DNA from: Bacteroidales bacterium
Lineage (GTDB): Bacteria > Bacteroidota > Bacteroidia > Bacteroidales > UBA932
Direction: 5' to 3'
Assembly: GCA_017477465.1 (NCBI GenBank)
Contig: JAFUVU010000009.1
Span: forward strand, 1-38,755
DNA: 38,755 nucleotides
Of the stretch, positions 22,364 to 38,359 are shown in pieces. The first letter of the stretch is position 1. The number at the start of each line of letters is the position of its first letter. The notes below the pieces were generated by a model. The model did no database searches. It had not been told where the DNA came from and saw only the letters and a program-made list of their open reading frames with translations. A program made the position numbers and the translations under genes.

Positions 22364-22459
22364 AAACACTTACAGGAAAACAATATGAAACACTTACAGG
22401 AAAACAATATGAAACACTTACAGGAAAACAATATGAAACACTTACAGGAAAACAATATG
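22364..22459 (+). repeat. Four tandem 24-bp repeats carrying start codons
   Basis: Four identical direct repeats of 24 bp occupy 22364-22387, 22388-22411, 22412-22435 and 22436-22459. Each contains acaggaaaacaatATG, that is, a Shine-Dalgarno-like AGGA about 7 bases before an ATG. All four ATGs are in one frame with the dehydrogenase gene; the first three add MKHLQENN units to the protein. Confidence 0.95.
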
Positions 22460-23737
22460 AAAATAGCAGTAGCAGGAACAGGATATGTGGGAATGAGCAT
22501 TGCGACGCTTCTTTCCCAGCACCACGAGGTGGTGGCCGTTGATGTGATCCCTGAAAAGGTGGATAAGATTAACCGCAAGGTTTCTCCTATTCAGGACGAG
22601 TATATCGAGAAGTATCTGGCCGAAAAGCCGCTTAATCTTCGGGCTACGCTCGATGGGCGTGCCGCCTATAAAGATGCTGATTTTGTGGTGATTGCGGCTC
22701 CTACCAATTACGACCCCAAGAAGAATTTCTTTGATACGTCGCATGTGGAGGAGGTGATCGAACTGGTCCTGGAGGTGAATCCGGATGCGGTGATGGTAAT
22801 CAAGAGCACGGTGCCGGTTGGTTATACGCGCAGTGTCCGCGAGAAGTTCTCGTATCGCGAGCGTCAGGCCGATGGCTCCTTCAAAGTTGTGGTTCCGAAG
22901 ATTATTTTTGCGCCGGAGTTCCTTCGTGAGAGCAAGGCGCTGTACGATAATCTTTATCCTTCGAGGATTATTGTCGGCTACGACAGCCCGACGGCCGAAG
23001 GAAATTCGCTGGCGGAGGCGGCGAGGGTGTTTGCCGGGATTATCAAGGAGGGGGCGATTAAGGAGGATGTGCCGGTGCTGCTGATGGGTTCGACGGAGGC
23101 GGAAGCGGTGAAGCTTTTTGCCAACACGTATCTGGCGCTAAGGGTGAGTTTCTTCAACGAACTGGATACTTATGCGGAGATGAAGGGCCTTGACACTCAG
23201 GCGATTATTGAGGGTGTGGGGTTGGATCCCAGGATCGGCACTCATTATAATAATCCTTCTTTCGGATATGGTGGATACTGCTTGCCGAAGGATACGAAGC
23301 AGCTTCTGGCAAATTTCAACGATGTGCCGGAGAATCTTATCAAGGCCATTGTGGATTCCAACCGCACTCGCAAGGATTATATTGCCGACAGGGTCCTCGA
23401 AAAGGCCGGATATTACACTGCCTCAAGCGCTTACGATGCGGTTAAGGAGAAGGAGGTTGTCGTCGGGGTGTATCGGCTCACTATGAAGTCTAATTCGGAT
23501 AACTTCCGTCAGTCGGCCATTCAAGGCATTATGAAGCGCATCAAGGCTAAAGGCGCGAAGGTGATTATCTTTGAGCCGACGCTGGAGGATGGGACGACGT
23601 TCTTCGGTTCGCGCGTTGTGAATGACTTAGTTGCTTTTAAAGAGCAGGCCGATGCGATTATCGCCAACCGCTACGACGCTGCCATGGACGACGTGCAGGC
23701 GAAGGTCTATACGAGGGATATTTTTAAACGGGACTAA
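22457..23737 (+). CDS. ugd: UDP-glucose 6-dehydrogenase
   Basis: About 426 residues from the last repeat ATG, a normal length. Rossmann motif [10 protein letters not shown] at the N-terminus, [18 protein letters not shown], the central-domain helix [20 protein letters not shown] and the catalytic cysteine in [10 protein letters not shown] are all present. The C-terminal UDP-binding domain has [17 protein letters not shown]. It oxidises UDP-glucose to UDP-glucuronate using two NAD+. The next gene is a UDP-glucuronate epimerase-like enzyme, which fits supply of a uronic acid for surface polysaccharide. Three earlier in-frame ATGs in tandem repeats could add 8, 16 or 24 residues. Confidence 0.9.
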
Positions 23738-28769: not shown

Positions 28770-28920
28770 GGGATGGGAGAAAACTCAGCGAGCCTAGGCG
28801 AGCTCACCACCACGGCGATAGTCGCGGACTACTGAACGAGGAGGAAGAAGACGAAGTAAAGACGAGCCCGACGGGGCTAGAGGAGCGAATGACCCGCGGT
28901 GCGGGCAGGGAAGGGAGAAA
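28770..28920. other. GC-rich non-coding stretch before the defence operon
   Basis: This part of the 365-bp gap has no open frame of note. It has small hairpins such as agccc-gacg-gggct (near 28866-28879) and cccgc-ggt-gcggg (near 28892-28905) and contrasts with the AT-richer operon that follows. It may be a dispersed repeat or mark the edge of an acquired segment. The rest of the gap holds a terminator candidate and a promoter. Confidence 0.35.
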
Positions 28921-28996
28921 CAAAAACATGCTGGATGTCTAAAAGAAATAAATGTGAATGATGGGTCTGTATCCCTGCTATCTGAGAGAAAAGTCG

Positions 28997-29004
28997 TAAT
29001 TTTG
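28997..29004 (+). promoter_or_regulatory. Promoter -7 element of the seven-gene defence operon
   Basis: TAATTTTG matches TAnnTTTG and lies 23 bases before the first start codon. At the expected -33 position only CCTG is present, so the promoter may be weak or need an activator. No other promoter is evident before 37225. Confidence 0.5.
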
Positions 29005-29027: not shown

Positions 29028-30509
29028 ATGACTGATCATTTTCCATACGTGCCTGACATTGACCGTCTTCTCAATACGCTACGAAAAATGGGTGGATCCC
29101 CAATAGGAGATTGGGAAGGGGATAGTTATGCCACTTTTTGGGTAAAAGAGAATGCTGTTGTATTAAACGGCGATAACTATGCCGTGGAAGCTTCTTTCCT
29201 TGCAATGGCCTCGAACGAGAAAGAAGTGGCACAGAATGCCTTCTGGAAGTGGATTGGTTCATCACAGCCGATAGAAGCTATCTTAGGTGCCATAGGAAAA
29301 GATGGTATTTGTATCTCAGATTTAATAACTAATCTTTCTGCTTATTACTCCGAGCAGGATACAAGGGTTCGTGTTGCGTGGATGGAACGACTCGGTATCG
29401 TTCGTGTAGAGCAAGGTAGATATGTTCTAAACGATGGTGAAATTGAGTATGATGAAGATGCGAAGGATGGAATATACCCTATAGACATAGAGGACACGAT
29501 TGACATCAAAGATGACAAATTCTCTGTGTTTGAATATATTCGCAAGGTGGACGGGGAAAAGATTGTAATGAACCCGGACTTTCAGCGTAATGAAGTTTGG
29601 ACGATAGAACAGAAGAGCCAGTTGATAGAATCAACTATGCTGGAGATACCTATCCCAGCTTTCTATATGAAGAAAGACGCCCAAGGACGCTTGGTTGTGG
29701 TTGACGGCTTGCAGCGCACGCTCGCATTGAGGGACTTTTTAAAAGACAAATTGCGGCTCACCGGACTTAATGCCTTGAGTAAGGTGAATGGGTACACCTG
29801 TTCGGAGATGCGCAATGATGACCGGCTTGCGAATCTTATTACAAGGGTTGAGGACAGGCAACTACTCTTTTATGTCATCTCCAAGGACACTCCGATGTCA
29901 ATTGTTTATGACATTTTCAATCGTATCAATACTGGAGGGACCAAGCTGGAGCGTCAGGAGATACGCAACTGTATCTTTATAGGCCATTCTACCAGACTCT
30001 TAAAGGAGTTGTCTGGTGAACAGGTTTTCAAGAAGGCGATTGATTATGGTATATCGGCGAAGCGAATGAAAGACAGGGAAGCCGCATTACGGTGTATTGC
30101 TTTTACTATTCTTGACTATCAGAAAACTTATTTCCGTTCGATGGATGATTTCCTTGAACGCGCAATGCGAAAAATCAACAAGGCAAGTCTTGTAGAAGTG
30201 GAGGATATGAAGAAACGTTTCCTGAACATTATGGAACAGACTCTGCGTGTGTTCGGGACTTCCAACTTTCGTATCCCATCAGACTATACCCGAGGAAGGA
30301 TAAACATAGCTGTGATGGAAACCATCTATTATGTTTTTTATAAGAAAGCAGAACTTGGTCAGACCATTGACAACAATTTAATGCGTCAGTCTTTCCGGAC
30401 GCTACTTAAAGATCCGGTGTATCTTGATGCAGTCAGAAACTCCACCGGTTCACCATCCAAGGTGGCTACAAGATTTAATTTGGCCAAACAAATATTCGAT
30501 GTGATATGA
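29028..30509 (+). CDS. DUF262 (ParB/GmrS-like nuclease) protein with N-terminal extension
   Basis: A 493-residue protein. Residues 175-320 show the DUF262 motifs: NPDFQRNEVW (182-191), VDGLQR (225-230) and FNRINTGGTKLERQE (297-311). DUF262 is a ParB/Srx-fold domain found in GmrSD-type restriction enzymes and other defence proteins, where it binds or hydrolyses nucleotides or nicks DNA. The first 150 residues are unusual for the family. They contain a segment (ILGAIGKDGICISDLI to GIVRVEQGRYVL, 85-134) that looks like a winged helix, possibly for DNA or partner binding. The C-terminal 170 residues are helical; no HNH (DUF1524) motif is seen. First gene of the operon; its stop overlaps the next start (ATGA). 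Confidence 0.8.
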   Translation: MTDHFPYVPDIDRLLNTLRKMGGSPIGDWEGDSYATFWVKENAVVLNGDNYAVEASFLAMASNEKEVAQNAFWKWIGSSQPIEAILGAIGKDGICISDLITNLSAYYSEQDTRVRVAWMERLGIVRVEQGRYVLNDGEIEYDEDAKDGIYPIDIEDTIDIKDDKFSVFEYIRKVDGEKIVMNPDFQRNEVWTIEQKSQLIESTMLEIPIPAFYMKKDAQGRLVVVDGLQRTLALRDFLKDKLRLTGLNALSKVNGYTCSEMRNDDRLANLITRVEDRQLLFYVISKDTPMSIVYDIFNRINTGGTKLERQEIRNCIFIGHSTRLLKELSGEQVFKKAIDYGISAKRMKDREAALRCIAFTILDYQKTYFRSMDDFLERAMRKINKASLVEVEDMKKRFLNIMEQTLRVFGTSNFRIPSDYTRGRINIAVMETIYYVFYKKAELGQTIDNNLMRQSFRTLLKDPVYLDAVRNSTGSPSKVATRFNLAKQIFDVI

Positions 30510-31684
30510 TAAGCGAACTGTTATTGGATAATTTCAAACTGTTTGGGAAAGAAACAAGGTTTTCTGGTTTGAAAAAAATCAATCTGCTTACGGGTGTCAA
30601 TGGACGCGGTAAGTCCTCTATGCTACAACCCCTATTGCTCTTTAAGCAAACATTACTCAGAAGCCGGTCGTCACGTCAGGTTTTTCTGTCGGGAAGTTTT
30701 GTCGACCTTGGTAATGCTGCTGACGTGAAGCACGTGGATGCTAGTATCACCAAGCCCATACGCTTTGGATTCCAAGACGAGGAGAACCGTTATGTTTATA
30801 CATTGGGTATTGCAGGAGAAAATAACCAGTCTCTTGACATCCAAAAGTTTGAGAGTGAAGGAAGCCAACAAGTCTCTGTAGATGTTGATGATAATACCAA
30901 CTTTCACGACCTTATACCCCAAACTGCCAATAATAACAAAGTGTTATTACCCTTTGAGGATGTCATCTATATTTCAGCAGAACGCATAGGACCTAAAATG
31001 AGTTTCTCTCCATCGTCAGATGATTGGATTGACAAACGAGGTGAACATACTATCCAGATGCTATATGAGCGTCAGTATGACAAAGTTGATGATAACATCA
31101 TAGAAGGGATGAAAGATATCTTCTATGATATAGATGAAGATGAATTGTCTCCAACTGTCAATGATATTCTTAATTTTTGGATGACAAGAATGTTTGGCCC
31201 CTCGTCTGTCACGGTTAACTATATTGAGGCGGCTAACATTTATGCCTTGGGTATAAGTACGGAACAAAAAGGTGGAAAGGCTGTGTTCAAGCCTACAAAT
31301 GTCGGTTTTGGCTACAGTTATGCTCTTCCTATTCTTATAGCAGGCCTCACGGCCGAAAAGGGCACTATTCTCATCGTGGAGAACCCAGAGGCTCATCTTC
31401 ATCCGTCTGCGCAGTCAATGATTACAAAGTTTCTTGGCTTAGTGGCAAATCGCGGCGTTCAGGTCTTTATTGAGACACATTCGGAGCATATCCTCAATGC
31501 ATTGCGTGTTATGGTGGTGCAAGAGAGTATGAAAGCCAGCGACATCAACGTAAAGTATTTTGATAGAGAGTTGAAGGATTATTTTGAGACGATAACCATT
31601 GAAGGAAATGGCAAATTGGATCATTGGCCCACAAACTTCTTTGACCAGGCGGAGAAAGACTTGAACGTGTTGCTGGGAATATAA
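30506..31684 (+). CDS. AAA/ABC-type ATPase with DUF3696, SMC/OLD-like
   Basis: A 392-residue ATPase with Walker A TGVNGRGKSS (29-38), an ABC-like signature region VGFGYSYALP (266-275), Walker B ILIVENPEAHLHP (288-300) and the His switch ETHSEH (323-328). The C-terminal DHWPTNFFDQ is typical of DUF3696. It belongs to the group of ATPases related to OLD, GajA and PtuA but has no TOPRIM domain, so a partner must carry the effector. The 4-bp overlap with the DUF262 gene and 3-bp gap to the next gene indicate a functional trio, with this ATPase as likely sensor or motor. Confidence 0.82.
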   Translation: MISELLLDNFKLFGKETRFSGLKKINLLTGVNGRGKSSMLQPLLLFKQTLLRSRSSRQVFLSGSFVDLGNAADVKHVDASITKPIRFGFQDEENRYVYTLGIAGENNQSLDIQKFESEGSQQVSVDVDDNTNFHDLIPQTANNNKVLLPFEDVIYISAERIGPKMSFSPSSDDWIDKRGEHTIQMLYERQYDKVDDNIIEGMKDIFYDIDEDELSPTVNDILNFWMTRMFGPSSVTVNYIEAANIYALGISTEQKGGKAVFKPTNVGFGYSYALPILIAGLTAEKGTILIVENPEAHLHPSAQSMITKFLGLVANRGVQVFIETHSEHILNALRVMVVQESMKASDINVKYFDRELKDYFETITIEGNGKLDHWPTNFFDQAEKDLNVLLGI

Positions 31685-31687
31685 GAT

Positions 31688-32491
31688 ATGAAGATCACGG
31701 TTTACATCAATGAGGAATCGTTGCAAGGCCAGTTGTGTGATCGTGTTGCCGAAGCTATCAACAACCTTCTTGCAGTCATCAATACCTTGGTAAGCAACCA
31801 GAGCGTGGAGGTGTCAGTACTTACCTCCAGTGCAATCTTTTCGAAACAGGTTTGTGCAGGGAGTGGCCTCACTTTGGCACAACTCGACAAGACAGACCAC
31901 GACCTGTTTATGAAATTCAAGGAAATACTTGACAAGGGGAAATATTGGGATAAAGCCAGTTCGGTTCAACATTCTGACGCACTCTATCTGTATAGAAAGC
32001 AACCAGTCAACGGGACGAGCGTAGCGGAGGCGAGAGAATCAGCAGAAAAAGGTTCGGCAGCTATGCTCGTCAGTTTGCCGGGCACTGACTATGTAGGCAC
32101 GACCATGAACATCGAAAAGGATGGAATAGGGATGGACGTCCCCCATGCTACGACTACGGCAGACGTGTTTGATTTCCTTTCGGGAAAAGGAGTTGCTTTG
32201 AAGTATGACCGTTCCAAGTTTTTGCGTGTGGATGATATGCAGACCGTACTTGTAGATTCTACTCAATTTGCGAAAACGAACCATAAGGTTCAAGGGCGTA
32301 CGGTTTATGAGCGGATTGGAAAAGACGAATATTGGTATGTGGATAATCTGCACAAAAATGGCTCTGTCCATTTGGAGGTGTTCCGTATGAGCGATGGCTT
32401 ATTCCTCGGCACTTGCGACATAGAGGATGTGAACAAATTCAAAGTAGCGACAAAGAGGGAGCAGACCAAGAAGGAACCGCTAAAGTTTTAA
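31688..32491 (+). CDS. Uncharacterised protein with colicin E3-like C-terminal domain, putative toxin effector
   Basis: A 267-residue protein. I do not recognise residues 1-180, which include a beta start (MKITVYINEE) and an Ala/Ser-rich helix near 110-125. From residue 203 the sequence resembles the 16S-rRNA-cutting domain of colicin E3: GRTVYER (203-209), then D219-x-x-H222, HLEVF (228-232) and RMSDGLFLG (233-241). Colicin E3 has, in the same order, GR-I-YE, a catalytic D-x-x-H-x3-E and YRASDGQHLG. Spacing between His and Glu is four residues longer here. A lysine-rich tail follows. If correct, it is a ribosome-inactivating effector held off by the ATPase or DUF262 protein until infection. 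The comparison is from memory, not a search. Confidence 0.6.
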   Translation: MKITVYINEESLQGQLCDRVAEAINNLLAVINTLVSNQSVEVSVLTSSAIFSKQVCAGSGLTLAQLDKTDHDLFMKFKEILDKGKYWDKASSVQHSDALYLYRKQPVNGTSVAEARESAEKGSAAMLVSLPGTDYVGTTMNIEKDGIGMDVPHATTTADVFDFLSGKGVALKYDRSKFLRVDDMQTVLVDSTQFAKTNHKVQGRTVYERIGKDEYWYVDNLHKNGSVHLEVFRMSDGLFLGTCDIEDVNKFKVATKREQTKKEPLKF

Positions 32492-32502
32492 ATATTTACG
32501 TT

Positions 32503-34365
32503 ATGTGGCACGATAACGAGACAGATAAGGATTTTCTTGGTTTTGTGGTACACGAGAAGTTGGTGCGCAGTGTAATCACAAATGATGCGAATTTGCCAGT
32601 GACATTTGGCCTTTTTGGTGATTGGGGTAGTGGAAAGTCGAGTATCCTTAAGATTCTGAAGAGCGATTTGGAGGACAAACCGTTTAAGGAGGACACTATT
32701 GTTATCTACTTTGACGGTTGGGTGTTTGAAGGGTATGATGATGCCAAGTCGGCATTGATGCAAGAGATAACAACTCAGCTTGTTGACCATAAGTCTTTAG
32801 CGAGTGAAGTAAAGGATAATGTTAAAGAAAAGGCGAAGAAGGTCTTCAAGTCCATCAAATGGCTTCGTGCACTGAAGTGGGGAGCCACAAATCTCGTCAT
32901 CCCGGGAGTCGCGGCTTATGCTACTGGTGGTTTCTCTTTAATCCCTTTTCTTTTGGGAAAACTGCGAGAAAACAAGGACACGCTTGTGGAGAAGGTAACA
33001 GGAGACGAGGGCGTAAAATTCTTGGAGGATATATTCAAAACCAGTCCTGCTGAGCCAGATTACTCTTCCGTTAGAGAATTCCGTGATAGTTTTTCGGAGT
33101 TGATAGATGCCACTGGCAAAAAACGTTTAGTCGTGTTAATCGATGACTTAGACCGGTGCAGCCCTCAGCGAATTGTCGAGAATCTTGAGGCAATAAAGTT
33201 GTTCCTGAATGTGGGCAAAACGGCATTTGTCATAGCAGCTGATGAGGCTATTATTTCTGACGCAGTGTATTCTGTATATACTACCTCGTTGGGAAATCGG
33301 ACATCCGAAGAGAAGCACAACCTTGGCAAAGACTATTTGGAAAAGCTAATCCAAGTGCCATATAATCTTCCTCGTCTTTCTTCAATGGAGGTTGAGACTT
33401 ATATCAATATGCTGTTGTGTAAGTCGTGTCTTAATAAAGATGAATTTGAAGAACTGAGGTTGAAGTTCCAAGAGTTTATCACCGAGAAGAAAAACAGTAT
33501 TTTCGATTGGGAGAATATATCTCCACTGATAAAGAGCGAAGAGATTAAGCAGAAGATCTTTCCACTTGTCAGTTTTATGGCTCCTGTGTCTGATATTATC
33601 GCAAGTAGTATGGATGGCAATCCTCGGCTTATTAAGCGATTTCTTAACGCCTATGAGTTGCGGACAAATCTATTAGAGGTTGGAGGGTTTGCTGACCAGA
33701 AGACAAGACTTGCTCTGCTGAAATTGATGGTAATAGAGCGTACCGACGATAAACTGTTTCAGCAATTATATGGTTGGCAAAAAATGCAAGATGATAAGCA
33801 CGTCGAAGATTTGGAGGCTCTTGCTGTGAAGAAAGACGCCAAATACGATGGAGAGCTAAAGGCATGGGATACCCCTTCGATGAGAAATCTGATGGCTCAA
33901 GAGCCCAAATTCAGTGAAGTGGATATGAAAACATTGTTCTGGGCCACACGGGCTTCATACGGCAGTGCAATGACAGGATTAACCTTGACTTCACAGGCTG
34001 TAAGAGATCTGATTTCAGCTGTGTTGGCCGATGCTACCACAGACAATATGATAGAACAAAGTTTTATCCCTAGGATAAAGGCGTTGACAGGCGGTGATTA
34101 TACTGATTTCTTTAAGTTGCTTGACAAGAAGATATTGTCAGATCCCTCACATAAGAGCGGGTACAATGTCTATTTCTTTTGTGTGGATGGAGACTTGCCA
34201 AATGCTTACACATCATTTAAGTCCTTGTTGAGTAGAGTGACTATCGATGATATACCGGGATCAATGGGGGCTAAGTTCAAGAAAATTAAAAAGAATCATT
34301 CACAAGATACTGCTTTCCAGAATTTATTTAAAGGAGATACTGAGATATCTAGAGCAATGAAATAG
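32503..34365 (+). CDS. qatA: QatA: KAP-family P-loop ATPase of the Qat defence system
   Basis: A 620-residue KAP NTPase with Walker A GDWGSGKSS (39-47) and Walker B with the KAP signature LIDDLDRCSP (212-221), followed by the ADE sensor (VIAADEAII). A hydrophobic segment near 125-150 (NLVIPGVAAYATGGFSLIPF) could be membrane associated, as in other KAP proteins. The start chosen is ATG 32503, 11 bp after the previous stop; the upstream frame from 32413 runs through the end of the preceding gene and is unlikely. The three following genes are QatB, C and D, which identifies the system. Its mechanism is not known in detail. Confidence 0.88.
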   Translation: MWHDNETDKDFLGFVVHEKLVRSVITNDANLPVTFGLFGDWGSGKSSILKILKSDLEDKPFKEDTIVIYFDGWVFEGYDDAKSALMQEITTQLVDHKSLASEVKDNVKEKAKKVFKSIKWLRALKWGATNLVIPGVAAYATGGFSLIPFLLGKLRENKDTLVEKVTGDEGVKFLEDIFKTSPAEPDYSSVREFRDSFSELIDATGKKRLVVLIDDLDRCSPQRIVENLEAIKLFLNVGKTAFVIAADEAIISDAVYSVYTTSLGNRTSEEKHNLGKDYLEKLIQVPYNLPRLSSMEVETYINMLLCKSCLNKDEFEELRLKFQEFITEKKNSIFDWENISPLIKSEEIKQKIFPLVSFMAPVSDIIASSMDGNPRLIKRFLNAYELRTNLLEVGGFADQKTRLALLKLMVIERTDDKLFQQLYGWQKMQDDKHVEDLEALAVKKDAKYDGELKAWDTPSMRNLMAQEPKFSEVDMKTLFWATRASYGSAMTGLTLTSQAVRDLISAVLADATTDNMIEQSFIPRIKALTGGDYTDFFKLLDKKILSDPSHKSGYNVYFFCVDGDLPNAYTSFKSLLSRVTIDDIPGSMGAKFKKIKKNHSQDTAFQNLFKGDTEISRAMK

Positions 34366-34366
34366 T

Positions 34367-35254
34367 ATGGGAACATCACAGAAATATAAAGCTTCTGTTT
34401 CCGGACAGCCTAATTGGGGAAAGATGACGGCTGCTTTGATGAGTCTGGCTGCAAGCGAGGCGAAGGAAGAAGAACTTGACCAGGAAGAACAGGAACTAGA
34501 AGAAGATAGTTCTTCAGACCAAGAACCAGCCCCTCAAACAACTCCGACTGATCAAAGGAAGAAAACAATTGAAAGGCGAAGGAGGAGGTTAAATACCCAG
34601 TTAGATAACAATTTACGTAAGTCTGTAAGCCACGCGGTTCGTGCTGCTGGTGGGAAAAAGGCGGTAGTATCAGGACGGTCGTTGGCATTTGGGCATAGTG
34701 GCTATGCGTTCATCAGCAATTTCGTCAATCGTATTGTTGAAATTGCTGAGGTCGGTCTGGTTCGCTGGCTTGAAGATAAAGGGGAAGGGCGGCTTGAAGA
34801 CAAAACTCCTCAAGAAGTTGTAACGACGATACTTGAGTTCTCGAAGGAATCGTTAAATACTATCGACAGTACTGCTGCAAGTGCTGCACTAGAAAGCCTA
34901 AATGACCTCCTAAGGAATAGATTAGGGGATGACCTGTCCAAATTCGATGAAAAGCTCCGGGGCTTACTTGCGCCCGGTGAAATGATAGAGATTATTGACA
35001 TTTTCTTTGCGGACTACATTTATAACCATCTTTCGACCTCCGTGTTTGAAAAGTTGGAGCGAAAATATGGACAGGAAAAGGCATTGCGCTTGATGTCAAA
35101 GATAAAAGATCAAATACGCGAGGATGTTAAAGCTCTTCCCCCAGATCAGCAATCTATGTCGATAGACTGGAAAAGGCAGTCAGGAAAAGATTTGCTTGAA
35201 CACGAGTTTAACAGGATAATAAGCATATACGTACCAGATGAGAATAACAATTAA
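34367..35254 (+). CDS. qatB: QatB: Qat defence system protein
   Basis: A 295-residue protein beginning MGTS, as QatB proteins commonly do. Residues 30-75 are of low complexity, first strongly acidic (EEELDQEEQELEEDSSS) and then basic (KKTIERRRRRLN). The rest is predicted helical (RSVSHAVRAAGGKKAV onward). QatB has no assigned enzyme activity. Recent work on Qat suggests that QatB is modified by QatC in a ubiquitin-like or peptide-modification manner; that is not provable from this sequence. It begins one base after qatA and overlaps qatC by 17 bp. Confidence 0.8.
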   Translation: MGTSQKYKASVSGQPNWGKMTAALMSLAASEAKEEELDQEEQELEEDSSSDQEPAPQTTPTDQRKKTIERRRRRLNTQLDNNLRKSVSHAVRAAGGKKAVVSGRSLAFGHSGYAFISNFVNRIVEIAEVGLVRWLEDKGEGRLEDKTPQEVVTTILEFSKESLNTIDSTAASAALESLNDLLRNRLGDDLSKFDEKLRGLLAPGEMIEIIDIFFADYIYNHLSTSVFEKLERKYGQEKALRLMSKIKDQIREDVKALPPDQQSMSIDWKRQSGKDLLEHEFNRIISIYVPDENNN

Positions 35255-36542
35255 TCAGTACGTCTTAAACGGGGCTCGGTTAAAAATTGAATCCCGGTCA
35301 GACACTGGCATAGATACCAGTGTGGATATAGATATGTGCAATCTGTCCTTTTTTGTGGATAAAATACCATCTTATCTAGTCGATTTGTTCTATCTGGCTT
35401 CTATAGCTTATGGCATTGATAGAGCTATTAGCAGGCATACAAGTTCCATAGATGGGTGGTCTAGAAAACTTGATGTCACCGTTAAGTCGCCCAACTCGGA
35501 ACTCTTTACAAGAAATAAGGAAAGGATAGATGCTATGCTGTCTTTTCTAACTGGCGACATTTGGGACATTGATTATGAATATACTGATCCGCCGGCTATT
35601 CAAGTATCTAATCTGCCTGAGATGGCTTGTGATTTCGGTCAAGTCAACTTGTTCTCAGGAGGTATGGATTCTTTCATAGGGGCTATAGATTATCTTGCTG
35701 GTCCTCATAACGGTAAGTTGTGCCTTATCTCACACTATGATCATAAAATGAGAGGGCCTCTGGAAGATCAGAATGTATCACTATGTGCATTGCAGCCATA
35801 TTCAGAAGATTACTATCATCTGCCGTCGGTCGCTATTTTCCCTGCGACATCCAATGAGAAGACTTGCCGTTCAAGGTCTTTTGTTTTTATAACAATAGCC
35901 TCATTAATCGCTTCGTATAAGCAGATTAAGCTTGTTGTGCCGGAAAACGGCTCTGTATCTTTGAATTACCCCCTGTCGCCTTCAAGAAGAGCCGCTTGTA
36001 GTACAAGAACTACTCATGTGCTTTTTATAAACGCATTGAAGGCATTATTTGCCTCTTTGGGAACTCCGATGGATATTGAGAATCCGTATGAGTTTAAGAC
36101 TAAAGGAACAATGGTTCGCGAATGTAAAGACCAGGCTTTGTTGATTGCCTCCGTCAATCGCACTAACTCCTGTGGTAAGAGGAATATGAAGCAACATATG
36201 ACAGATTCTTCTGCGTCACATTGTGGAAGATGTATGCCTTGTATGTATCGAAAGGCTGCATTGATAGGATACCTTGACGCTACTACATACGGTGACACTT
36301 TGGCGCAGTTGTTCCAAGATAATGGAGCGCGTTCCGACGATTTCTTTGCCATGTTAAACTTTCTTCGTGCCGACCTTACAGATGAAGATATCCGTAAAGA
36401 ATTGAGAATTGCAGGTCTTGGAAGATTAGACACCTTTGAACAGTATGTCCGATTGGTGAAGGCTACAAGAGAAGAATTGAAAGCAATGATACTGGCGCAA
36501 GAGAATTGCGATGAAGTAAAACGTTATGTTGGTCTGATATGA
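35238..36542 (+). CDS. qatC: QatC: QueC-like PP-loop ATPase of the Qat system
   Basis: A 434-residue protein with an N-terminal extension of about 130 residues and a QueC-like PP-loop domain. The ATP-pyrophosphatase motif is NLFSGGMDSF (137-146). The zinc site of QueC is complete: Cys312, Cys329, Cys332 and Cys335 (SCGK, HCGRCMPC). QueC makes the nitrile of 7-cyano-7-deazaguanine, but no other queuosine genes are in the window, so this copy belongs to defence. ATG at 35238 lies within the end of qatB; the stop overlaps the qatD start by 4 bp. Confidence 0.88.
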   Translation: MRITINQYVLNGARLKIESRSDTGIDTSVDIDMCNLSFFVDKIPSYLVDLFYLASIAYGIDRAISRHTSSIDGWSRKLDVTVKSPNSELFTRNKERIDAMLSFLTGDIWDIDYEYTDPPAIQVSNLPEMACDFGQVNLFSGGMDSFIGAIDYLAGPHNGKLCLISHYDHKMRGPLEDQNVSLCALQPYSEDYYHLPSVAIFPATSNEKTCRSRSFVFITIASLIASYKQIKLVVPENGSVSLNYPLSPSRRAACSTRTTHVLFINALKALFASLGTPMDIENPYEFKTKGTMVRECKDQALLIASVNRTNSCGKRNMKQHMTDSSASHCGRCMPCMYRKAALIGYLDATTYGDTLAQLFQDNGARSDDFFAMLNFLRADLTDEDIRKELRIAGLGRLDTFEQYVRLVKATREELKAMILAQENCDEVKRYVGLI

Positions 36543-37225
36543 TTATCGACACACATTGTCATTTCGATATGATGCCCAATCCTGAGGCATACATTAACGA
36601 GCGAGAGAAAGCTGGGGAAATAGTGATAGGAATGACAAATCTTCCTTCGCATTTTGCGATGGGTTTCTCTCATGTTAGGCAATATAAACACATTCGTTTA
36701 GCATTGGGATTGCATCCTTTATTGGCGGCTGAGAACAAAAACGAGGTAAACGGTTTTAAACGGTTTTTAGGGAATACATCATATATTGGAGAAATAGGGC
36801 TTGACTTTTCCAAAGAAGGTTATGCCACAAAAGACGGCCAGATAGATGTCCTGAGAGAATTGCTCATTGCTATTCGGAATAAGCGCAAAATAGTAAGTGT
36901 CCATTCCAGAAGGGCAGAAAAAGAATTGTTAGCCCTATTATGCGAATATGAGATTCCCAATGTAATCTTCCATTGGTACAGTGGTCCTGTCAGCTTGATA
37001 CCCGCAATATTGGAGCAAGGTTACTATTTCTCGGTGAACGAAGCGATGTGTTACTCCCAAAAAGGACGGCAAATTATTGATGCAATTCCTCGTTACAGAC
37101 TGTTGACGGAAACTGATGCTCCTTACAATGACAGGTGTAGTATCCCAAAGTTACTGGAAACAATTGGAGTTGAAAATAAAGTCATCTATAACAATTTTAA
37201 GCGGTTATTAGAGTCTGTAGGATAG
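36539..37225 (+). CDS. qatD: QatD: TatD-like metal-dependent hydrolase of the Qat system
   Basis: A 228-residue TIM-barrel amidohydrolase of the TatD DNase family, slightly shorter than the usual 255-265. All metal ligands are present: His6 and His8 (THCHFD), Glu85 (GEIGLDF), His122 (SVHSRR), His145 (IFHWYSG) and Asp193 (TETDAPY). TatD enzymes cut DNA; in Qat the protein is the presumed nuclease or an amide hydrolase acting on a modified partner. Last gene of the operon. Confidence 0.88.
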   Translation: MIIDTHCHFDMMPNPEAYINEREKAGEIVIGMTNLPSHFAMGFSHVRQYKHIRLALGLHPLLAAENKNEVNGFKRFLGNTSYIGEIGLDFSKEGYATKDGQIDVLRELLIAIRNKRKIVSVHSRRAEKELLALLCEYEIPNVIFHWYSGPVSLIPAILEQGYYFSVNEAMCYSQKGRQIIDAIPRYRLLTETDAPYNDRCSIPKLLETIGVENKVIYNNFKRLLESVG

Positions 37226-37603
37226 AATACTCAATTCTTCTATCAGACATTAACGCCCTGTAAACGGCCCATTCCTGGGAACTGGTGTTGAACAAAGTCG
37301 TTGAATGGTTTTTGACTGATCTGAATTTGATTTTCGATTGATTTCTACGCGAAGCGTATCACAAGTTATAAATGCCAACAACAAAGGGCCAACGCAGCGA
37401 ACCATTAACCAAAAGTTGACCCTTAACCATGAACCCTTAACCGTGAACCATAAGTTAAGGAGCCTGTAAGCAGGGTAGAAGCAGGGTATAGGCTATCTGC
37501 GTGACTTGAAACCTGAAACGTGGAACCTGAAACCGGTAGCTGAGTCATCAGTGTCCCCAGAAAAACGAAATAAACAATAACAAATTAAAATATTCAAATA
37601 CAA
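37226..37603. other. Repeat-rich spacer after the defence operon
   Basis: 378 bp without a gene. It holds a 14-bp tandem pair, cccttaaccatgaa (37420-37433) and cccttaaccgtgaa (37434-37447), then agcagggta twice (near 37469 and 37480), then gaaacctgaaac and ggaacctgaaac (37508-37519, 37522-37533), also with a period of 14. No terminator with a T-run is visible. The pattern resembles short repeats in Bacteroidales surface polysaccharide loci. Confidence 0.6.
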
Positions 37604-38359
37604 ATGATTAACGTTGGAATTATTGGATGTGGCTTCGTAGGCGGAGCCTTGAAAGATTGGTTGGAACATAACAACCCTGAGTGCAAACTGTTCATCAGCG
37701 ACCCTCCCAAGGGGTACTTCGATGACTTGAGCAAGATTGACATTGCCTTCTTGCAGATTCACGTGCCCACTGAGGACGACGGTACGCAGGACCTCACGCT
37801 GATGAAGGAGCTCATCACCAACCTGCCCGACGTTCCCGTGTTCGTTCGCACCACCATCCTCCCCGGAACCAGTGAGATGCTCTCGCGTGAGACCAAACAT
37901 CAGGTATGCTACATGCCAGAGTTCCTGACCGAGCGTACTTTCCTGGAGGATTTCCGCAAGCAGACCATGGTATTCACCGGAGCACAGGAACTGCTCACCA
38001 AGATCTTCGTCGGCAAGAAGTTCACCGTCATGACCCCGCTTGAGGCCGAGCTCACCAAATATATGCACAATGTCTTTGGCGCCTACAAAGTGACTTACTT
38101 CAACGCCTGCCGCGAGTATTGCGAACAGATGGGGGCCGATTGGCGCAAGGTGCACACAGGCATCCTTCTCTCCGGCTACATCAACGATACACACACTTAT
38201 GTCCCCGGTCCCGACGGCAAGTTCGGCTACGGTGGCAAGTGCTTTCCCAAGGACGTCAACGCCTTCGCCAAGATGACAGAAGGCACACCGCTCGGAACGC
38301 TGCTTGAGCACCTGCACGAGCTGAATGTGCATTTCCGTGGAGTCGAAGAGCATATCTAA
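37604..38359 (+). CDS. Short nucleotide-sugar dehydrogenase (UDP-glucose/GDP-mannose dehydrogenase family)
   Basis: A 251-residue protein with a Rossmann domain (GIIGCGFVGGALKDWL), the segment VRTTILPGTSEML, EFLTERTFLEDF in place of the usual APEFLREG, a central domain helix (LTKYMHNVFGAYKVTYFN) and the catalytic-cysteine motif GYGGKCFPKD. It stops soon after that motif and so lacks the roughly 100-residue C-terminal domain that holds the nucleotide sugar in Ugd. The stop is clean, and no downstream frame continues it. Short forms occur in capsule loci, so it may be functional, but catalysis is not assured. It is clearly different from the full-length ugd at 22457. Confidence 0.75.
   Translation: MINVGIIGCGFVGGALKDWLEHNNPECKLFISDPPKGYFDDLSKIDIAFLQIHVPTEDDGTQDLTLMKELITNLPDVPVFVRTTILPGTSEMLSRETKHQVCYMPEFLTERTFLEDFRKQTMVFTGAQELLTKIFVGKKFTVMTPLEAELTKYMHNVFGAYKVTYFNACREYCEQMGADWRKVHTGILLSGYINDTHTYVPGPDGKFGYGGKCFPKDVNAFAKMTEGTPLGTLLEHLHELNVHFRGVEEHI

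What the first reader, a model, noticed from the sequence alone, without database searches (positions are those of the whole stretch)
29028..37225. Seven-gene defence operon joining a DUF262-ATPase-toxin trio to a full QatABCD system
Seven plus-strand genes have gaps or overlaps of -4, +3, +11, +1, -17 and -4 bp and a single promoter candidate upstream. The last four match QatABCD by gene order and by catalytic motifs. The first three form a unit I cannot match to a described system. The pattern suggests either two systems fused into one transcript or an extended Qat with extra sensor and effector genes.
Basis: partly seen in the sequence, partly recalled or inferred. Interest (0 to 1): 0.9.

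Follow-up and report, generated by a model that had tools for sequence, protein, structure and literature searches.

The report
Two phage-defence systems joined in tandem
Two known bacterial anti-phage systems, Menshen and Qat, sit here as one tight seven-gene cluster, and comparison with relatives suggests that the Qat half is an exchangeable cassette that gets joined behind many different defence systems.

Summary
The seven genes and their spacing are real. The first three are not an unknown unit: they match NsnA, NsnB and NsnC of the named Menshen system. The last four are QatABCD, with the motifs reported as essential in P. aeruginosa. So this is two known systems in one operon-like cluster, not an extended Qat. 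The pairing was seen only here among 97 Qat loci (22 of them show under 3 kb before qatA). Against the nearest Qat (QatC 77%), DNA similarity starts one base before the qatA start codon; in front stands a different defence pair. In 26 of 79 assessable Qat loci a same-strand gene ends within 60 bp of qatA; 22 of those 26 belong to known or candidate defence or toxin-antitoxin families (AbiL-RloB, type I-III restriction, BREX, AbiE, Menshen, PDC families). Two locus pairs share 93% or 82% identical DNA in front that stops about 73 or 133 bp inside qatA, with QatA and QatC about 31% identical behind. Qat thus behaves as an exchangeable 3' cassette. NsnC looks like the effector; its C-terminus varies between loci (YoeB-like in one). 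Co-transcription and functional coupling are inferred. I found no description of the cassette pattern in the library searched.

The parts
29028..30509 (+). nsnA: DUF262 (GmrSD_N) protein, 493 aa, VDGLQR motif at residue 225; N-terminal extension outside the NsnA model
   Evidence: PADLOC NsnA E 2.4e-107 over residues 138-491; Pfam PF03235 E 5.4e-24; motif
30506..31684 (+). nsnB: OLD/PARIS-like ABC-type ATPase with C-terminal DUF3696, 392 aa; no TOPRIM domain found
   Evidence: PADLOC NsnB E 3e-98, end to end; Pfam AAA_15, AAA_21, DUF3696; Walker motifs
31688..32491 (+). nsnC: presumed effector, 267 aa; C-terminus differs between Menshen loci
   Evidence: PADLOC NsnC E 2.1e-38, and NsnC models matching only N- or only C-terminal parts; third ORFs of 26 loci compared by eye
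32252..32488 (+). C-terminal domain of NsnC, shared (40-49% identity) with three NsnC proteins of the same GTDB family; D219-x-x-H222 ... E230 pattern (32342-32419) like that of an E3-type rRNase domain, unproven
   Evidence: alignment A5; regular expression found in 4 of 3824 ORF segments, three NsnC and one E3-type domain; hhalign not significant
32492..32502 (+). joint of the two cassettes: 11 bp between the nsnC stop and the qatA ATG
   Evidence: DNA similarity to the nearest Qat locus L072 runs 32502-37135; no other blastn match of 60 bp or more
32503..34365 (+). qatA: KAP-family P-loop NTPase, 620 aa from ATG 32503
   Evidence: PADLOC QatA E 3.3e-94, NCBIfam QatA E 2.7e-107 under cut-off, KAP_NTPase E 2.9e-46
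34367..35254 (+). qatB: presumed substrate of QatC, MGTS N-terminus, P15/W17 in the tail
   Evidence: alignment with seven QatBs, MGTS and P15 invariant; PADLOC QatB E 0.002; role of MGTS from PMC13279940
35238..36542 (+). qatC: QueC-like ATP-pyrophosphatase; SGGMDS, STRTTH and the C-x(n)-CGRCMPC zinc motif
   Evidence: NCBIfam QatC 291.5 bits over cut-off 280; PDB QatC 9zee E 1.6e-49; motifs
36539..37225 (+). qatD: TatD-family nuclease with HCH, GEIGLD, VHSR, ETDAP motifs
   Evidence: PADLOC QatD E 3.1e-51, Pfam TatD_DNase E 2e-42, NCBIfam QatD under cut-off, motifs
28974..29004 (+). candidate Bacteroidota-type promoter, -7 box TAATTTTG ending 23 bp before nsnA, poor -33 box; not above chance

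Best explanation
A composite operon of two separately functioning anti-phage systems. Menshen: NsnA (DUF262) and the OLD-like ATPase NsnB sense infection and release or activate the toxin NsnC, which kills or arrests the cell. [quoted passage not shown] The two are probably read from one promoter before nsnA. The pair arose because qatABCD is an exchangeable cassette whose left edge is the qatA start: Qat cassettes are repeatedly joined behind other defence operons or swapped there. Shown here: gene identities, motifs, the joint, the recurrence and the swaps. Inferred: one transcript, NsnC as the killing part, and any benefit of pairing, for which I favour layered defence with an OLD-type suicide module backing up Qat.
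For: Identities. Joint at the qatA start against L072. Neighbour survey: 26 of 79 assessable loci (window included) have a same-strand ORF of at least 120 aa ending within 60 bp of qatA, 13 of 76 have one behind qatD, 1 of 79 has an opposite-strand one within 60 bp (overlapping) of qatA (Fisher p 0.027 upstream vs downstream). 22 of the 26 match known or PADLOC-candidate defence or toxin-antitoxin families. Swaps L080/L121 and L084/L138. In the window's 16-member QatC clade (SH-aLRT 100, quick tree) 12 members carry seven different module types within 300 bp (L082, labelled none there, is a further restriction-type case). NsnC C-termini differ between Menshen loci and one is a YoeB toxin domain, E 6.5e-17. 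Qat chemistry: PMC13279940, sections Results and Discussion. OLD-type backup effectors within BREX operons: PMC12839542, passages.
Against: No transcript data. Menshen beside Qat was seen only here, so this particular pair may be a chance join. In the less window-centred subset only 5 of 21 loci have the close upstream gene (13 of 21 within 300 bp). On the QatC tree module labels are more clustered than in shuffles (23 changes vs mean 30.2, 0 of 200 as low; AbiL 5 vs 8.7), so modules and Qat also stay together for long stretches. Of ten family loci with an NsnA and an upstream ORF in view, four have a same-strand ORF within 60 bp before nsnA, one of them PADLOC-recognised, so chaining is not unique to Qat. 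The upstream/downstream contrast is modest. The window is from a draft genome, 82.5% complete; many compared loci are metagenome bins, L084 and L138 among them. The left edge of the Menshen half could not be found.
Confidence: 0.77

Rival explanations
1. Extended Qat: NsnABC are sensor and effector parts that this Qat needs, and the seven genes are one system.
For: Tight spacing, and OLD-type or related ATPase plus effector pairs recur within 300 bp before qatA: AbiL-RloB in 9 of 79 loci, Menshen in 1, the Septu-like PDC-M62AB in 1.
Against: QatBC alone protected against phage lambda-vir in both the P. aeruginosa and the E. coli version (PMC13279940). The nearest Qat has another module. Menshen in none of 96 other Qat loci (with the 3-kb caveat). 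Among the 31 labelled rows of the QatC tree the module changes at least 16 times, where 11 labels would force 10.
Confidence: 0.08
2. Chance juxtaposition in a defence island with separate promoters; the tight spacing has no functional meaning.
For: Defence genes cluster in islands (established). No co-occurrence excess of the two systems: 3 of 395 genomes hold both, expected 1.8, p 0.41.
Against: 11 bp gap with no room for a leader; no Bacteroidota-type promoter candidate within 300 bp before qatA. Recurrence of close same-strand defence genes before qatA and ends of DNA similarity at the qatA 5' end.
Confidence: 0.15
3. Guard arrangement: Menshen fires when a phage disables Qat (or the reverse), as PARIS reacts to an anti-restriction protein.
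For: NsnB is OLD/PARIS-like. PARIS-like and other OLD-ABC effector modules are described as backup effectors inside BREX operons (PMC12839542, passages). AbiL-RloB, an ATPase plus RloB pair, is the commonest recognised module before qatA here (9 of 79 within 300 bp).
Against: No trigger known; restriction systems, AbiE and BREX occupy the same slot, which a dedicated guard would not predict.
Confidence: 0.2

Closest known systems
Menshen (NsnABC)
   Same: Gene order, DUF262 NsnA with DG-x-QR motif, OLD-like ATPase NsnB and NsnC all match PADLOC models.
   Different: The C-terminal domain of this NsnC has no Pfam match at E up to 1; no TOPRIM family was found in the three proteins, although a review describes one in a Menshen component (PMC10952713, passages); nsnC is followed at 11 bp by qatA.
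Qat (qatABCD; Gao 2020, recalled; structure PMC13279940)
   Same: Four genes in order; MGTS start of QatB; SGGxDS, the T-x-T pair and zinc cysteines of QatC; KAP and TatD motifs.
   Different: Its QatC is about 50% identical to the next relatives apart from L072 (77%); joined behind Menshen.
AbiL-RloB + qat operons (for example L024/L075, L027/L138)
   Same: ABC-type ATPase plus effector directly before qatA, gaps of 5-63 bp in eight of nine and 149 bp in L086; five of nine in the window's QatC clade.
   Different: ATPase and effector families differ; no DUF262 protein in the pair.
BREX operons with OLD-ABC/TOPRIM backup effectors (PMC12839542)
   Same: A second, suicide-type module in the same operon as a primary defence system.
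   Different: There the host system is BREX; here Qat. In L130, L135, L162 and L113 Qat itself stands behind BREX genes.

Membership tests
Menshen | nsnA-nsnB-nsnC in this order, each matching its model | tested here: met
   PADLOC E 2.4e-107, 3e-98, 2.1e-38, best hit in each case
Menshen | DUF262 nucleotide-pocket motif in NsnA; Walker motifs in NsnB | tested here: met
   VDGLQR at 225; GVNGRGKS at 30, ILIVEN at 288
Menshen | OLD TOPRIM nuclease domain in a component (described in a review; not required by the 345-position NsnB model) | tested here: inconclusive
   No TOPRIM family at E up to 1 in any of the three; the NsnB model is matched end to end without it
Menshen | Phage resistance lost when a gene is removed | not testable with these tools
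   bench test
Qat | qatA, qatB, qatC, qatD adjacent in this order | tested here: met
Qat | QatB tail beginning MGTS with conserved P and W | tested here: met
   MGTS, P15, W17 present; MGTS and P15 invariant in eight QatBs, W17 not in all
Qat | QatC with SGGxDS, T-x-T substrate residues, four zinc cysteines, N- and C-terminal extensions | tested here: met
   over the NCBIfam cut-off
Qat | QatA over its curated cut-off as KAP NTPase; QatD over its curated cut-off as TatD nuclease | tested here: inconclusive
   Best hits to QatA and QatD models and intact motifs, but 360 vs 600 and 196.6 vs 230 bits
Colicin E3-type rRNase (NsnC C-terminus) | Profile match to PF09000 or to an E3-type domain | tested here: not met
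   No Pfam hit at E up to 1, none among six PDB hits at E up to 10, hhalign Prob 0.2 over one column against one E3-type domain (profile of only 4 sequences); only the residue pattern agrees

The most novel reading that the evidence does not exclude
qatABCD (sometimes just qatABC) is a general exchangeable 3' cassette of Bacteroidota defence operons: it is swapped by recombination in the conserved first ~25-45 codons of qatA, so that one upstream system (AbiL-RloB, type III restriction, BREX, Menshen) keeps its place while very different Qat alleles pass behind it, giving layered immunity under one promoter, with OLD-ATPase suicide modules acting as guards of Qat.
Probability: 0.5. Interest if true: 0.72.

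Novelty: new variant of a known kind. Interest (0 to 1): 0.55.

Why it matters
Defence genes are known to cluster in islands, but here two systems touch within 11 bp, and relatives show the seam to be a repeated exchange point. That gives a concrete rule to test (look behind any Bacteroidota defence operon for a Qat cassette) and a question: are Qat alleles traded like specificity subunits because phages escape them, and do suicide modules in front guard Qat? It also warns against reading such operons as new seven-gene systems. PADLOC already has models for all seven proteins.

Tried and rejected
Considered and dropped: (1) trio as unknown system: PADLOC names it. (2) Menshen and Qat as habitual partners: 3 of 395 phylum genomes hold both by NsnA E<=1e-40 and QatC E<=1e-20, expected 1.8; in the two besides the window they are on different contigs, and in one the QatC hit is under the cut-off. 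(3) Phage-borne origin: no relative of the window's NsnC, its C-terminal domain or NsnA in viral contigs; four Qat loci there, none with an ORF within 60 bp before qatA, their neighbours not scanned; two weak hits in Listeria phage records. (4) E3-type rRNase identity of the NsnC C-terminus: kept only as a hint. The regular expression was loosened by me to allow gaps, so its 4 of 3824 is not a clean test; a first count lost the window's own copy through my de-duplication and was redone. (5) Empty site: in 25 other genomes of the genus the upstream flank matched in 19, with one 43-bp exception only in its rubrerythrin gene, and the downstream flank in 2, on other contigs than the upstream match. 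(6) An RNA feature in the leader: none at Rfam gathering scores. (7) Six plasmid Qat loci outside Bacteroidota, chosen by hand from 30 listed of 132 records: restriction genes stand on the same strand before qatA in three (L197 at 124 bp, L198 at 222 bp, L199 with another gene between); the PLSDB gene table is incomplete.

The AbiL and RloB labels rest on my own four-sequence models, checked by Pfam and PADLOC for three loci (L024=L075, L025=L076, L027=L138). Four of the 22 recognised cases are PADLOC candidate families only (L078, L085, L104 by its copy L105, L134). L121, L135 and L082 were recognised by similarity to scanned L080, L130 and L081. Of the other four of the 26, L120 and L141 were not scanned, L155 gave nothing, and in L127 the adjacent ORF was not scanned (the one before it gave nothing, a type I methyltransferase stands further up). 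The tree is of the quick kind. Alignment A3 wrongly held a non-NsnC ORF from L062 and was not used. The literature search was useless (28,091 papers, nearly all listed ones about Qatar), and one search were broad and only one search was followed from them.
Full report
What is there. Seven + strand genes at 29028-37225 with gaps -4, +3, +11, +1, -17, -4. Their G+C is 39.9-46.3%, against 45.4-57.4% for 19 other ORFs of the window that I picked as likely genes, which points to acquired DNA. The window is one whole contig of a draft genome of 2.4 Mb, 82.5% complete, and starts with the end of a 23S and a 5S rRNA gene.

The trio is Menshen. PADLOC scores: NsnA 2.4e-107, NsnB 3e-98, NsnC 2.1e-38. 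NsnA has the DUF262 pocket motif; NsnB is an OLD/PARIS-like ATPase with DUF3696. The name Menshen for nsnABC (Millman 2022) is recalled; a review names Menshen as a DUF262 system whose DUF262 gene is needed (PMC10952713, passages). A paper on Menshen domain polymorphism (Li 2025, NAR gkaf357) was seen only as a reference-list entry and is not held.

The quartet is Qat. QatC passes its curated cut-off and is matched by solved QatC chains. QatB starts MGTS, and QatC keeps SGGMDS, STRTTH and the zinc cysteines. QatA and QatD are under their NCBIfam cut-offs and QatB is a weak model match. In P. aeruginosa Qat, QatBC alone protects against lambda-vir, the QatB glycine is essential, and QatA/QatD affect the range of phages (PMC13279940, Results and Discussion read).

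How often they meet. In 199 genomes of the window's family QatC is over cut-off in 9 and NsnA at E below 1e-50 in 12 (my count); only the window's genome is in both lists. In 395 genomes of the phylum: NsnA 40, QatC 18, of which 13 over cut-off, both 3, expected 1.8, p 0.41; the two others have them on separate contigs. Among 97 non-redundant Qat loci no other has an NsnC hit of my models; one has a 25-bit NsnA-like ORF behind its qat genes (L081) and five have NsnB-like ATPases of 20-44 bits. Only 75 of the 97, window included, show more than 3 kb before qatA.

What stands before qatA elsewhere. I used 109 Qat loci: the window, 9 from the family sample, 80 named genomes (the best 80 of 330, ranked by likeness to the window's QatC), 19 from order and phylum samples. 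Twelve were dropped as at least 95% identical in QatC; of the 97 left, 79 could be assessed. A same-strand ORF of at least 120 aa ends within 60 bp of qatA in 26 of 79, within 100 bp in 28, within 300 bp in 44; an opposite-strand one within 60 bp in 1. Behind qatD the same-strand figure is 13 of 76 (p 0.027; 25 of 78 vs 13 of 76 without the window, p 0.040). Without the window and counting only sampled genomes, 5 of 21 within 60 bp and 13 of 21 within 300 bp. By stretch of the 80-locus list: L072-L086 8 of 14, L087-L103 1 of 13, L104-L151 14 of 36.

Of the 26, 22 are recognised: RloB of an AbiL-like pair (7: L075, L077, L084, L112, L123, L138, L151), type III restriction (4: L080, L121, L148, L150), LlaJI-type restriction (2: L081, L082), BREX BrxL (2: L130, L135), PDC-S27 (2: L078, L085), type I specificity subunit (L153), PDC-S02 behind a type I enzyme (L134), AbiEii (L098), DUF3990/PDC-M13 (L104, read on its copy L105) and Menshen (window). 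PDC families are PADLOC candidates, not named systems. Not recognised: L120, L127, L141, L155 (two of them not scanned). Looser cases: AbiL in L076 (63 bp) and L086 (149 bp), BrxC in L113 (63 bp), type IIG in L157 (102 bp), PDC-S49 in L079 (166 bp), PDC-M62AB in L072 (288 bp), BrxL in L162 (298 bp).

A small comparison: of ten Menshen-type loci of the family with an upstream ORF in view, four have a same-strand ORF within 60 bp before nsnA (L030, L032, L062, L070); PADLOC recognises one of these (L070, a type I specificity subunit; that locus has no NsnB) and the methyltransferase at 137 bp in L063. So chaining is not peculiar to Qat.

The seam. Window against L072: DNA similarity (72%) spans 32502-37135, beginning one base before the qatA ATG; no other match of 60 bp or more was found, and L072 has PDC-M62AB in front. 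L080 (Segatella buccae) against L121 (Prevotella pallens), both named strains: type III restriction proteins 93 and 97% identical, DNA 93% until about 73 bp inside qatA; QatA and QatC then 31%, QatB unalignable, QatD 65%. L084 against L138: AbiL 94%, RloB 88%, DNA 82% until about 133 bp inside qatA, then no match until the start of qatD, from which DNA is 91% identical over 3 kb; QatA and QatC 31%. These two are metagenome bins. The ends are blastn ends; since the first codons of qatA are conserved, the true crossover may lie earlier. L075 against L084 is the mirror image: similarity starts 2 bp before qatA, the AbiL and RloB proteins being 30 and 32% identical. On a quick QatC tree the module label needs 23 changes over all 79 rows, or 16 over the 31 labelled rows, where 11 labels force 10; but labels are more clustered than in shuffles (mean 30.2, 0 of 200 as low), so modules also stay put for a time. 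The window and L072 are sisters (100), inside a 16-member clade (100) holding seven module types.

NsnC. In 26 of 34 Menshen loci examined a third ORF follows NsnB directly; by eye these end in different small domains; that of L173 is a YoeB toxin domain, E 6.5e-17, while most of the others scanned gave no confident Pfam match. The window's end is shared with three NsnC proteins of the same family, one of them cut short, and shows D-x-x-H ... E-V-F ... G-x-x-D, like an E3-type rRNase domain (4 of 3824 ORF segments match, three NsnC and one true E3-type domain), but no profile method confirms it.

Mechanism. Two autonomous systems under one probable promoter; exchange at the conserved 5' end of qatA brings new Qat alleles behind a resident system, or new systems before a Qat. 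AbiL-RloB pairs are the commonest recognised module; OLD-ABC/TOPRIM and OLD-ABC plus other nucleases are described as backup effectors encoded in BREX operons (PMC12839542, passages), so a backup role beside Qat is reasonable but untested.

Literature. Searches for Menshen, Nsn, Qat and qatABCD terms and passages of PMC13279940, PMC13329287, PMC10121019 and PMC12839542 showed no account of Qat as an exchangeable cassette; one search was swamped by papers about Qatar. Most listed papers were seen as listings only. Subscription papers are mostly missing from that library and it holds few or no preprints, so this is not proof of absence.

Noticed in passing
L084:7291-11350 versus L138:5283-9312: qatABC replaced between a conserved AbiL-RloB pair and a conserved qatD plus 732-aa downstream gene: an allele swap inside one operon.
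   Followed up: partly
L080 and L121, upstream of qatA: Nearly identical type III restriction proteins (93 and 97%) in Segatella buccae and Prevotella pallens followed by Qat systems only 31% identical in QatA and QatC.
   Followed up: partly
L173 (NsnC, 285 aa): Menshen third protein whose C-terminus is a YoeB toxin domain (E 6.5e-17).
   Followed up: partly
L076/L025, qatA: qatA is split into two ORFs (225 and 395 aa) in UBA1680: frameshift or assembly error.
   Followed up: no
L137:186-8756: Type IIG-like enzyme, OLD-like ATPase and an unscanned 1121-aa ORF where qatA would stand, then qatBCD; no QatA hit to my model.
   Followed up: no
window 28780-28940: G+C-rich, odd-looking leader before nsnA; single copy in the genome, no Rfam match.
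   Followed up: partly
window 37401-37446 and 37504-37531: Short direct repeats of 14 nt (ACCCTTAACCATGA and ACTTGAAACCTGAA types) behind qatD.
   Followed up: no
window 37604-38359: UDP-glucose/GDP-mannose dehydrogenase-like ORF of 251 aa without the C-terminal domain seen in the full-length paralogue at 22385-23737.
   Followed up: no
L104/L105, upstream of qatA: DUF3990 protein (PDC-M13A) with a small partner directly before qatA.
   Followed up: partly
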